Part shown: positions 19,504 to 56,795 of the stretch, piece after piece
Numbering within the stretch: the stretch's first letter is position 1
Layout of the letters: each line of letters starts with the position of its first letter
Assembly (NCBI RefSeq): GCF_002105755.1
Contig: NZ_CP020821.1
Location: forward strand, 1,612,001 to 1,676,000
Direction of reading: 5' to 3'
DNA length: 64,000 nucleotides
DNA from: Mycobacterium colombiense CECT 3035
GTDB lineage: Bacteria; Actinomycetota; Actinomycetes; Mycobacteriales; Mycobacteriaceae
Made by a program: the position numbers and the translations under genes
Notes under the pieces: model-generated
Database searches by the model: none
Told to the model about the DNA's origin: nothing
Seen by the model: only the letters and a program-made list of their open reading frames with translations

Positions 19504-19528
19504 AAAAACAGCGGAACCGGCGCTGTTT
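19504..19528 (-). terminator. Intrinsic terminator of the PKS-FAAL operon
   Basis: On the minus strand AAACAGCG and CGCTGTTT form an 8-bp perfect stem with a 7-base loop (CCGGTTC). The strand continues into two more T residues, giving a five-T tract. It lies about 155 bases beyond the stop of the acyl-AMP ligase gene, the last gene of the biosynthetic operon, and could also stop plus-strand transcripts entering from the other side. Confidence 0.65.
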
Positions 19529-19681
19529 CGGTAGCGCGGGTGGACCGCACCAGAACTCGACCAGGCGATCCGGACCCGATCAGCATCAATGGCGTTCGGC
19601 AATGACAATTCAACTTTGTCGTCGTGGTCAACAACTCCGGCCGACCCGCAATGCCACGGAAAACCGCGCCGGTGATGGCGT

Positions 19682-53696: not shown

Positions 53697-54068
53697 GGCA
53701 ACCAGACTGTCGCTGGGCCGCTCACCGTTTGTCGTGAGCCATTGCCGGGTCCGCTGCTACATCAATGCCGAACTCGCTGCCGCCAGATAGAGCCGGAAGG
53801 AGTCACGCGGATCCGAGCCCACGCCCGAGTAGCCCGGTGGGGGTTGGTCCTCGACTACCTGAAATCCCCTCGGCGGGACCGTATCTGCGGGACCGGACGG
53901 GCCGCCATCGTGACCAGCGGTCACGGTCGTGTGCTTTCGACTACCTATCATGAGCCGGAGCGTATGGCCGCTCGAGAGGGCGCCGCCGGAATCTAAAGGG
54001 AAGTCGAGTGGTGCGCGCGCCGAGTTAGAGTAGCGGGCCTCAGAACTGCATAGCTTTCTTACACAAAC
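53697..54068. other. 372-bp gap between the two LuxR regulators
   Basis: Nothing coding or repetitive is recognised here. It is long enough for a separate promoter for the proximal regulator, but I see no convincing -35/-10 pair. Confidence 0.4.
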
Positions 54069-56795
54069 TTAGCCTGCGTAGGGATGAGCATCGTCCCCGC
54101 AACCAAGCGGCCGGCCGTCGCGGCCCATCATCTCGCTCTCCGCAGTCAGCTCTGGAGTCGTCAGCAAGACGAGTTGCTCGCGACTGTTGACGCCGAACTT
54201 GGCGAACAGGCGATAGAGGTGTCCTTCCACCGTGCGCACCGAGATGACCAACCGCTCGGCGATCTCACGGTTCGACAAACCGGCCGCGACCAGACTCACG
54301 ATCTGGCGCTCACGTTCACTGAAGGGGAGCGGGCACACGGCGGCCTCGACCGCCGGCGTGTGCAACTCGCAACGGCCCGCCAACGCGTGCGCCCAGGCCG
54401 ACGACTCGAATCTCTTACCGCGCTCGCCCCGGCGGGCATGTTCGCCTGCCGCCTGCGCCGCGGCGTCGGCGGCGCACGCCAAGGCGCCGAGGTCGGCGAA
54501 TAGATGTGCCGCGACGTCGAGCAGATCGCCGTCGCGTTGCGCCAAACCGCGAGCATGATCGGCGACTGCCCCGGCCAGCGCCGTGTCCAGAAGGTGGGCG
54601 AGCTTCTCCAGCCTCGCGGCCTGGGAACGATCGCCGAAGCGGACGGCCGCATGGCGTGCCCGCATCTCCATCACGTGCGTCCCCGCGGCGCGCGCGATCT
54701 CAGCCGCTTGCGTGGCATGGGTCTGGGCGGCCTTCACGTCACCGGCCGCCGCCCGCTCCCAGGCGCGGGCAAGCTCGAGTTCCGGCACAAACACCGCGAC
54801 ATGCGGTCCGTAGGCTTTGTCCGCGCGCCGCAACGCCGCGGCGGCCGCCGCAGTGTCGCCACGCGCGCCCTCCGCCTGGGCTTGCCAGGCGCCCACCACC
54901 ACCAACCACGGCGACGCAAAACCCTTGGCGAGGACCGCGATCGAACTGTTGAACACGGCGCACGCCGCCGTCAGCTCTCCGCGGGTGAGTCGAACGAACC
55001 CCAGCATCGCGTCAATCATGGCCTCCGCCGCGGGAAGACCTCCGGTCATCGCGGCGTAACGCTTGTAGATTCGCTCGGCCGCGGAGTCGTCACCGGCGCC
55101 CGTCGCGGACATGATCTCGGTCATCCCGATGTTGAATCGATGCGGCCCCAATCCGCACAGCGCAGCCGCACGTACCCCGGCGTCCGCGATGCGGCCGACC
55201 TCGGAAAAACGCCCGGCCGCCGCCAATGCTCCGCAGGTCGGGAAAACCGCCCATGCGGTCGCCATCGGCACCGCGTCGGACTCGCACAGGCCCGGCCCGA
55301 GCTCGATCGTCGTCTCGACGTCCCCATGGAAGTAGGCCATGGACAGCTCCAACGCGTTGATCAGGGTCAGGCCGGCCTCGGACGAGACGCGTTTCTTCAC
55401 TTCATCGAGTTCCCGGATGGCGGCCTCGACGTCCCCGCAGCCCCAGAAGAAGTTGGCGGCGCGCAGGCACCCCCATCGGGCGATCAACCAGTCGTCGCCG
55501 CCGTCGGGTTCGGGCTCGGGTTCGGCATCGACAAGCACCGAGTCCGCCTCGTCGCCGCGCCCCTGCCAGCTCACCGCCTCGGCAAGCGCCAAGGCGGCGG
55601 GCAGCCCGCCACCGCGATCGACCGCGAACCTCGCCAGTTCCTCACCCAGCACCACATTCGACATGGCCAGCGCGTCTTGCGCCGCCGCGATGACCACATC
55701 GAGGTCGGGTTCCAAGTCACTGTGGATCATGAACTGCGCCAACCGGATCCGGCGTTGCAGTCCGGGCCGTCCCAGGGGTCCGCCGCCCGCCTGCTCATGC
55801 TTCTGCAGCGCTCGCGCGATTTTGCCGTTGAGTTGCCGGGCGCGCACCATTCCGGCATGCCGGGTCGCGGCTTCACCGAGCATCGGATGACTCAACTGCG
55901 CCACGGTGTGAGATCCGTCGGCAACCAACTGAATCAGGCCACGACGCTCCAGGGTCGCGACGGCCTCCGCATCGCAGATGTCACGCAGGATTTCCCACTT
56001 CAGCCGTTCCGCGGTGGCCAACAGCTCCACCACCTCCAATTCCGCTGGGCTCAGCGATTGCAGCCGAAACCTGAGAACGTCATGAAGTTCGCGATCCGCG
56101 CGCAGCGGGCCCCGCAGTTGCCAGCCTTCCTCCGTGTGGACCAATGCGCCAGATTCCCGGCCGGCGGTCAGAAACCCCCTCAGCAGCAAGAGATTTCCCG
56201 CGCTGCGCTCAAACAACTCGTCAACCACCCCGGCCTCGACCGGACCACCCAGAACGGCGCCGGCCAAGAGACCCGTCTGCTCGCGGCTGAACGGTTCCAC
56301 ATGGACGGTCAGCAACAGGCGCTCTTTCAACAACGCCGTCACCGCATCCAGCACCGGCTCGCGCGACCGGATCGTCACGATCAACCGCGCGCTGCGGCCG
56401 GCTGCGAGCTGATTGATCAATGTGGCCGACAGCGGATCGAGCAACTGCGCGTCGTCGACCACCACCACCAGGTTCTTGTCCCTGCCCAAGGTGTCATGGG
56501 CCGCCGCCAGCAAGACCGCCGGTTCGTGCGCCACCTGGAGGCTGACCGCGCGGGAAAACGCGCCAAGCGGCACCGCGCAACCGGTTTGGGTGCCCAGCGC
56601 GAATCGCACCGTGCGCCCCGCCGACTCCACCGTCTTGGCCAGCAAGCGGGCCAGGGTGGACTTGCCCACCCCGGCGTCCCCAACCAACGCAACCCCATTG
56701 AACTCAGAGTTGTTCAGCGCGGTCAGCGACCGCCGCAGCTCTACATCGCGGCCCACGATAGGCCACGCCGACCCGACTTCCCCCGGCACCTTCAA
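54069..56795 (-). CDS. LuxR-family ATPase regulator (LAL type), distal copy
   Basis: This is a 908-residue paralog of the preceding regulator, alignable over its whole length with most residues shared in the ATPase and HTH regions. Walker A is GDAGVGKST near residue 33. Walker B is NLVVVVDDAQL, with the second acidic residue changed from Glu to Asp. The C-terminal HTH is LSNREIAERLVISVRTVEGHL. It has an extra tail of about 20 residues. The first codon is a TTG with only TAAGG nearby, and a GTG two codons later is an alternative. Tandem duplication followed by divergence would allow response to two signals. Confidence 0.92.
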   Translation of the reverse strand: MKVPGEVGSAWPIVGRDVELRRSLTALNNSEFNGVALVGDAGVGKSTLARLLAKTVESAGRTVRFALGTQTGCAVPLGAFSRAVSLQVAHEPAVLLAAAHDTLGRDKNLVVVVDDAQLLDPLSATLINQLAAGRSARLIVTIRSREPVLDAVTALLKERLLLTVHVEPFSREQTGLLAGAVLGGPVEAGVVDELFERSAGNLLLLRGFLTAGRESGALVHTEEGWQLRGPLRADRELHDVLRFRLQSLSPAELEVVELLATAERLKWEILRDICDAEAVATLERRGLIQLVADGSHTVAQLSHPMLGEAATRHAGMVRARQLNGKIARALQKHEQAGGGPLGRPGLQRRIRLAQFMIHSDLEPDLDVVIAAAQDALAMSNVVLGEELARFAVDRGGGLPAALALAEAVSWQGRGDEADSVLVDAEPEPEPDGGDDWLIARWGCLRAANFFWGCGDVEAAIRELDEVKKRVSSEAGLTLINALELSMAYFHGDVETTIELGPGLCESDAVPMATAWAVFPTCGALAAAGRFSEVGRIADAGVRAAALCGLGPHRFNIGMTEIMSATGAGDDSAAERIYKRYAAMTGGLPAAEAMIDAMLGFVRLTRGELTAACAVFNSSIAVLAKGFASPWLVVVGAWQAQAEGARGDTAAAAAALRRADKAYGPHVAVFVPELELARAWERAAAGDVKAAQTHATQAAEIARAAGTHVMEMRARHAAVRFGDRSQAARLEKLAHLLDTALAGAVADHARGLAQRDGDLLDVAAHLFADLGALACAADAAAQAAGEHARRGERGKRFESSAWAHALAGRCELHTPAVEAAVCPLPFSERERQIVSLVAAGLSNREIAERLVISVRTVEGHLYRLFAKFGVNSREQLVLLTTPELTAESEMMGRDGRPLGCGDDAHPYAG

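What the first reader, a model, noticed from the sequence alone, without database searches (positions are those of the whole stretch)
19504..56795. Complete FAAL-PKS-NRPS lipopentapeptide locus with an unusual gene set
All genes from 56795 down to 19682 run on one strand and form a coherent pathway: two LAL regulators, MbtH, a five-module NRPS (starter C, internal N-methyltransferase, TE), an MFS exporter, a Mas-like fully reducing PKS, a P450, a haemophore-like protein, a SIP-type flavoprotein and a FAAL. The module count and N-methyl position (module 3) differ from what I know of the M. avium lipopentapeptide L5P (N-methyl on residue 2, D-Phe first) and from glycopeptidolipid NRPSs. No epimerisation domain, PapA or MmpL is present. 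This may be an undescribed lipopeptide or depsipeptide. I cannot check whether the locus has been catalogued.
Basis: partly seen in the sequence, partly recalled or inferred. Interest (0 to 1): 0.85.

Follow-up and report, generated by a model that had tools for sequence, protein, structure and literature searches.

The report
Mycobacterial lipopeptide locus, altered catalytic histidine
A gene cluster shared by several Mycobacterium avium-complex species probably builds an undescribed fatty-acid-capped peptide of five residues, and at one joining step its assembly enzyme has a glutamate in place of a catalytic histidine, which makes a disputed piece of peptide-assembly chemistry testable.

Summary
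The gene content reported is real: one strand, LAL-LAL-MbtH-NRPS-MFS-PKS-P450-hemophore-SIP-FAAL. In this assembly the NRPS lies in three frames and the PKS in two; relatives carry them uninterrupted. The locus sits between metH/ansP and mshC and recurs there in other species. It is neither MAP L5P nor GPL: no epimerase, N-methylation in module 3, Thr-like module 2.

Two corrections or additions matter. (1) The "Mas-like" PKS has a malonyl-type AT motif (VAFH; MAS has VASH) in 12 of 12 distinct copies read, so a straight-chain acyl is predicted. (2) The condensation domain after the N-methylating module reads HEIAADG instead of HHxxxDG. I found 20 such domains in 17 genomes, one clade (support 0.985); 19 of 20 directly follow an N-methyltransferase domain. 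Glu143 is the only column that passed my diagnostic test. All 17 genomes carry the cluster's P450, though that P450 also accompanies synthetases without the change. The second His is disputed in the literature; a full-text search found no "HExxxDG".

A ~220-bp promoter is duplicated upstream of both transcription units. Product and function are inferred, not shown.

The parts
54069..56795 (-). LAL_A, LuxR-type regulator with AAA domain
51021..53696 (-). LAL_B, second LAL regulator
50404..50626 (-). promoter repeat, copy upstream of MbtH-NRPS-MFS
50173..50403 (-). MbtH-like protein
47675..50155 (-). NRPS frame piece 1: starter C, first part of A1
42279..47936 (-). NRPS frame piece 2: end of A1, T1, C2-A2-T2, C3
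32263..42390 (-). NRPS frame piece 3: A3-MT-T3, C4-A4-T4, C5-A5-T5, TE
39841..40890 (-). N-methyltransferase domain of module 3 (the stretch used as query)
38011..39435 (-). C4 condensation domain
38992..39012 (-). codons of HEIAADG (Glu in place of the second His of HHxxxDG)
32335..33009 (-). thioesterase domain
30717..32228 (-). MFS exporter of the DHA2 type
30351..30553 (-). promoter repeat, copy upstream of PKS-P450-MHB-SIP-FAAL
24351..30287 (-). iterative PKS, frame piece a: KS-AT-DH-ER-KR, malonyl-type AT motif VAFH
23863..24582 (-). PKS frame piece b: end of KR and ACP
22524..23843 (-). cytochrome P450, closest solved relative CYP150A6
22208..22546 (-). hemophore-related protein
21424..22191 (-). 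SIP-type flavoprotein
19682..21421 (-). fatty acyl-AMP ligase (FAAL)

Best explanation
A conserved M. avium-complex lipopeptide pathway. Shown by sequence: gene set, module order, no epimerase, synteny, motif changes. Inferred: the FAAL activates a fatty acid, the fully reducing PKS lengthens it with malonyl units, and the starter C domain joins it to residue 1. Five modules build acyl-X1-Thr-(N-methyl)Val-like-X4-X5, X1 and X4 having nearly the same code; the TE releases it, linear or as a lactone through Thr. C4, which joins the N-methylated residue 3 to residue 4, is a working condensation domain with Glu where others have the second His. The P450 probably oxidises the peptide or the acyl chain; SIP and the hemophore-like protein serve reductant, haem or iron handling; the MFS exports. 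Two LALs act on a duplicated promoter.
For: Domain content. Synteny and intact NRPS elsewhere, e.g. open frames of 5952 (G412) and 5959 (G118) residues. Starter and elongation C domains without E. A-domain codes read beside the genome's own GPL synthetase. AT motif in 12 of 12 distinct PKS copies. HE domains: 20 in 17 genomes, one clade, 19 of 20 after an MT domain. Promoter repeat: two copies only in the genome, CCACTC spaced 22 bp in 11 of 12 aligned copies.
Against: This strain's NRPS and PKS are frame-broken, so it may make no product. X1, X4 and X5 are not securely predicted. HE is not a rule for N-methylated donors: 55 HH domains also follow MT domains, as does one in this genome (L081), and one HE domain (G367) has no MT detected upstream. 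PMC8949500 (passage) calls the HHxxxDG motif essential for peptide bond formation, which speaks against a working C4. The malonyl reading rests on motif lore and one MAS comparator. No expression, mass or activity data; the C4 model was too poor to use.
Confidence: 0.72

Rival explanations
1. C4 does not condense. As with the X domain of glycopeptide synthetases it is a non-catalytic C fold that docks the P450 (or the chain skips module 4).
For: Catalytic motif changed; 16 of 16 other HE genomes carry the P450 at 86-93% identity; 7 of 7 HE genomes fall among the 19 of 248 with this P450 (4.8e-9, kinship not corrected); X domains are C-like, changed in this motif and recruit P450s (PMC11546977 and PMC8949500, passages).
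Against: A4 and T4 follow and would be useless; first His, Asp and Gly are kept and only one column is diagnostic, unlike HRxxxDD; the same P450 family sits by an NRPS without HE or MT, read from starter C to TE, in G117; in G387 P450 and HE domain lie on different contigs.
Confidence: 0.15
2. The locus is decaying in this strain: the frame breaks are true losses, as in M. lepraemurium.
For: Three frame breaks here; in M. lepraemurium L059 PKS, P450, SIP and FAAL are each split over frames; other NRPS genes of this genome break inside C domains near 747.08 and 1009.3 kb.
Against: Long pieces with motifs kept; other genes of the locus open. Breaks in several long genes of one assembly also fit base-calling indels. 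Reads were not available.
Confidence: 0.3
3. The product is a haem- or iron-acquisition lipopeptide rather than a structural surface lipid.
For: Hemophore-related and SIP genes lie inside the gene cluster and recur in relatives; a 75% SIP homologue in G022 lies near PPE and haem oxygenase genes.
Against: No IdeR-type box in the window (recalled consensus); no hydroxamate- or salicylate-type siderophore gene was seen among the families found; no chelating residues predicted.
Confidence: 0.2

Closest known systems
M. avium subsp. paratuberculosis lipopentapeptide L5P (NRPS gene mps1)
   Same: N-acylated pentapeptide with one N-methyl residue, five modules, M. avium complex
   Different: L5P is D-Phe-NMeVal-Ile-Phe-Ala with a C-terminal methyl ester (PMC8103206, abstract and passages). 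Here no E domain, N-methyl in module 3, Thr-like module 2. Another NRPS of this genome (988-1017 kb) has the L5P-like order
Glycopeptidolipid (GPL) and M. abscessus GL8P clusters
   Same: multimodular NRPS, MbtH, fatty acyl ligase
   Different: GPL (here 714-730 kb, assigned from its codes) has E domains; GL8P is an octapeptide with four E domains, glycosyltransferases and MmpL (PMC11978893, abstract and one section). Here no E domain, LAL regulators and an MFS exporter
MAS/Pks2 iterative synthases with their FAAL partners
   Same: domain order and best sequence matches (Pks2 model 3508 bits; MAS structures), FAAL nearby
   Different: AT reads VAFH/GHSLG, not VASH/GHSMG; transfer to a starter C domain is inferred, no PapA
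X domain of glycopeptide synthetases; ORF18 condensation domain (HQxxxDM)
   Same: C-fold domains with a changed HHxxxDG motif (PMC11546977, passages)
   Different: C4 changes only the second His, to Glu, keeps Asp and Gly, and stands mid-chain after an N-methylating module

Membership tests
MAP L5P synthetase | five modules | tested here: met
MAP L5P synthetase | D-residue 1 (E domain in module 1) | tested here: not met
   five C matches in the interval, none of the E type; tree for four of them
MAP L5P synthetase | N-methyltransferase in module 2 | tested here: not met
   in module 3
MAP L5P synthetase | C-terminal methyl ester | not testable with these tools
   needs chemistry
GPL synthetase | Phe-Thr-Ala-alaninol order with E domains | tested here: not met
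Methyl-branched (MAS-type) PKS | KS-AT-DH-ER-KR-ACP order | tested here: met
   (two frames in this assembly)
Methyl-branched (MAS-type) PKS | AT motif as in MAS (VASH) | tested here: not met
   VAFH in 12 of 12 distinct copies
FAAL | fatty-acid--AMP ligase model above cut-off | tested here: met
   NF004509
Elongation (LCL) condensation domain, for C4 | groups with LCL domains | tested here: inconclusive
   not in the tree (motif filter); 70-78% identical to HH elongation domains and sister to one
Elongation (LCL) condensation domain, for C4 | HHxxxDG motif | tested here: not met
   HEIAADG
X domain | HRxxxDD motif; place between last carrier and TE (place recalled) | tested here: not met
Hemophore-related family TIGR04529 | score above curated cut-off | tested here: met
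CYP150 P450 | nearest solved relative CYP150A6 | tested here: met
   469 bits, next best 157; nearness only, no family threshold applied

The most novel reading that the evidence does not exclude
Mycobacteria hold a distinct class of condensation domain in which the second His of HHxxxDG became Glu once and was then kept in at least 17 genomes, each of which also carries one CYP150-type P450. It joins N-methylated (perhaps P450-oxidised) donors by a different acid-base arrangement, or doubles as a P450 docking site. In addition the MbtH-NRPS-MFS block is a cassette between two direct-repeat promoters that can be cut out as a circle and exchanged, changing the peptide.
Probability: 0.35. Interest if true: 0.75.

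Novelty: new variant of a known kind. Interest (0 to 1): 0.6.

Why it matters
Surface lipopeptides of the M. avium complex serve as species-specific antigens (L5P, PMC8103206), and this would be another, with residue changes between species; G412, which has the locus, has the genome length I recall for M. intracellulare ATCC 13950. More generally, the role of the second His of condensation domains is stated to be unsettled (PMC11546977, passages). A natural His-to-Glu change kept across species at one step of an assembly line lets that question be tested with native domains and native substrates.

Tried and rejected
Structured RNA leader in the duplicated promoter: no Rfam match in the window and a weak consensus fold (-9.83 kcal/mol; 4 of 25 pairs with a two-sided change); read as a DNA-level promoter. 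IdeR box: none with up to 3 mismatches. CCACTCTRTGTG alone is not significant in the window (8 found, 6.8 expected); the evidence is the conserved block and the spacing. Methyl-branched acyl chain: rejected on the AT motif. L5P or GPL product: rejected. HE as a general mark of N-methylated donors: rejected (11 HE and 55 HH after MT; 333 HH without, 55 HH at an edge, 2 other motifs). HE as strictly P450-bound: weakened (in 13 of the 17 P450-holding loci listed a starter C lies in the same stretch, two of the 13 being one region fetched twice; several show only HH domains). SIP as a marker of the cluster: G022, G069 and G035 have it with no other cluster gene detected in the stretches fetched. 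C4 structure: mean pLDDT 62.5, not used for a fold search. Plasmid search for the 20,977-base contig: no record covers 80% of the query. Literature: full-text searches; 'HExxxDG' 0 papers; most subscription papers are not held.

Dropped rows. One search lists 24 HEIAADG sites in 21 of 396 genomes (one match to the reversed control); 6 sites (G117, G336, G424, G143, G005, G043) are not condensation domains by context, leaving 18 in 15 genomes; HEVAADG in G328 and HEITADG in G367 make 20 in 17. This is a lower bound: one search scored at most four candidates per genome at E <= 1e-240, and the pattern allows one motif only; 71 distinct domains, identical ones merged: HE 19 with MT, 1 without; HH 1 with MT, 45 without, 5 at an edge. 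One search used 68 of the 71 (under 400 aa dropped). One search scored the 2255 candidates sharing most words and listed 120, which one search used.

Full report
WHERE IT IS. The window is bases 1,612,001-1,676,000 of a single-contig 5,581,643-base genome. Named records that carry the locus or part of it include M. colombiense strains, M. vulneris, M. arosiense and M. lepraemurium, so this is most likely an M. avium-complex genome; its name was not established.

THE OBSERVATION. The reported gene products were confirmed by family models. The NRPS reads C*-A-T / C-A-T / C-A-MT-T / C-A-T / C-A-T-TE. The interval holds five condensation-family matches, none of the E type. In a tree of 34 C and E domains from five NRPS sets, the window's module-1 domain falls with starter domains, and modules 2, 3 and 5 fall outside the clade of domains that follow E domains. 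Module 4 was missing from that tree because the HHxxxDG filter did not find it, which is how its change was noticed.

FRAME BREAKS. The NRPS lies in three frames and the PKS in two. In relatives the matches run on without overlap at these points, and open frames of 5952 (G412) and 5959 (G118) residues exist. Other NRPS genes of this assembly also break inside C domains (near 747.08 and 1009.3 kb), which fits base-calling indels, but true loss cannot be excluded.

CONSERVATION. The order metH - permease (ansP-like) - FAAL - SIP - MHB - P450 - PKS - (MFS) - NRPS - MbtH - LAL - LAL - mshC was read in the window, G046, G118 and G412, and from metH to the LALs in G330 (for G118 the metH side is seen in L040, a named locus of the same contig by length and place). 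Parts of it are seen in L039, L042-L045, L054 and L057. M. lepraemurium L059 has it with PKS, P450, SIP and FAAL each split over frames. Of five chromosomal loci read through the whole NRPS, four have five modules (window, G046, G118, G412) and one has six (G330 C1). The six-module one and L043-L045 and L054 lack the MFS. Module 3 carries MT in all five, and module 2 has a Thr-like code in all five; modules 1, 4 and 5 vary (the module-3 code of G412 and the module-1 code of G046 were not fully read, being cut at a locus end or frame).

PREDICTED PRODUCT (inferred). Codes were read by alignment (the position mapping is recalled). This genome's GPL synthetase gives a local key, assigned from the recalled GPL order: DFWSVAAVC Phe, DFWSVGMVH Thr, DVWSVAAVY and DVHSVAAVY the two Ala positions. 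The window gives DFWSLGAIY, DYWSVGMVH (Thr-like), DAGTIGGIW with MT, DFWSLGAVY, DVCSVALVH. A third NRPS of this genome has an E-type match in module 1, MT in module 2 with DAGTVVGIW, and DVWSVAAVY in the last module of its first protein: the order of L5P (PMC8103206). If so, this kind of code means Val, and residue 3 here is N-methyl-Val-like. X1 and X4 have nearly the same code, probably small or aliphatic; X5 is unknown. The TE may close a lactone on Thr2.

THE ACYL CHAIN. The PKS is a MAS/Pks2 homologue over its length, but its AT reads VAFH with GHSLG where the MAS of the solved structures reads VASH with GHSMG. The 12 distinct copies that could be read agree (14 rows, two of them second fetches of the same genomes). 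Phe instead of Ser at this place is the usual malonyl mark (recalled), so straight-chain extension is predicted.

THE HE DOMAIN. C4 reads HEIAADG. In 396 genus genomes, 22 had a C4 match at E <= 1e-240, and the codon pattern was found in 21 genomes, 24 sites, with one match to the reversed control; 18 sites in 15 genomes are condensation domains. Two variants bring it to 20 domains in 17 genomes. Among 71 distinct C domains in hand, 19 of 20 HE and 1 of 46 scorable HH follow an MT domain. Among 120 proteins of the large search, 11 HE all follow MT, while 55 HH also do and 333 HH do not; so HE is a sublineage of post-MT domains, with MT at least 67% identical to the window's in that call. The 20 are monophyletic (support 0.985), and position 143 is the only column that passed a test of at least 90% in HE against at least 85% of another residue in HH. 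The second His is described as catalytic base, as positioning residue, or as dispensable in some domains, and ORF18 carries HQxxxDM (PMC11546977, passages); PMC8949500 (passages) calls the motif essential. 'HExxxDG' occurs in 0 papers of the library.

P450 LINK. The 16 other HE genomes all carry the cluster P450 at 86-93% identity; of five genomes with only HH best hits, one does. In the 248-genome sample 19 carry it at about 77% or more, and the 7 HE genomes of that sample are all among them (4.8e-9, kinship not corrected). Against a strict coupling: in G117 the P450 lies beside an NRPS read from starter C to TE with neither MT nor HE, and in G387 P450 and HE domain lie on different contigs. 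SIP, in contrast, is found in 11 of the 16, so HE domains also occur in genomes without this locus.

REGULATION. A ~220-bp block upstream of MbtH recurs upstream of the PKS (77% over 222 bp), with no third copy in the genome. It is conserved in relatives. CCACTC repeats start 22 bp apart in 11 of 12 aligned copies; in the twelfth the first half is degenerate and the spacing 23. In G412 the PKS-side copy still holds what reads like the first codons of MbtH, so it probably came from the MbtH side. The LALs are the likely readers (inference).

A CIRCLE. G330 has a 20,977-base contig. Read across its ends it holds a 5991-codon open frame, an MFS gene, MbtH and one repeat copy, leaving about 1.3 kb by subtraction; no search for replication genes was made. 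This is what recombination between the two promoter repeats would cut out; it may also be an assembly product. P0011, named M. senriense, lies on a contig of the same length.

KNOWN OR NOT. Not L5P, GPL or GL8P (PMC8103206; PMC11978893, abstract and one section). The searches named above found no description, but PMC11978893 surveyed GPL-like loci and may list it.

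Noticed in passing
G330:C2 (L167-L168), whole 20,977-base contig: Read as a circle it contains little but MbtH, one five-module NRPS with an HE domain, MFS and one copy of the promoter repeat: a block cut out between direct repeats, or an unresolved tandem copy.
   Followed up: partly
genome 988-1017 kb (L080-L082): A separate NRPS whose first protein has the L5P order (E-type match in module 1, MT in module 2, Ala-type last), followed by another NRPS protein with further modules.
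   Followed up: partly
L098:7350-10276 (G022): A 75% SIP homologue lies near a PPE gene and a haem oxygenase gene with no other cluster gene detected, hinting at a haem-related role. G069 has a 74% homologue; its neighbours were not examined.
   Followed up: partly
L059 (M. lepraemurium): The same locus with PKS, P450, SIP and FAAL each split over frames: natural decay of this pathway.
   Followed up: partly
genome near 747.08 kb and 1009.3 kb: Other NRPS genes of this assembly change frame inside condensation domains: indel errors in long genes, or more lost pathways.
   Followed up: no
window 37054-37353 and 47789-48088: Stretches of modules 4 and 1 are 99% identical over 300 nt, a sign of recent gene conversion between their A domains.
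   Followed up: no
G367:C1:102379-103803 (L121): An HE-type domain (HEITADG) without an MT domain detected upstream, about 3 kb from the P450: MT lost, or HE independent of it.
   Followed up: partly
window 10040-10807: Small gene with a mannan-binding protein repeat (PF12151) and DUF3298, next to an mce-type operon.
   Followed up: no
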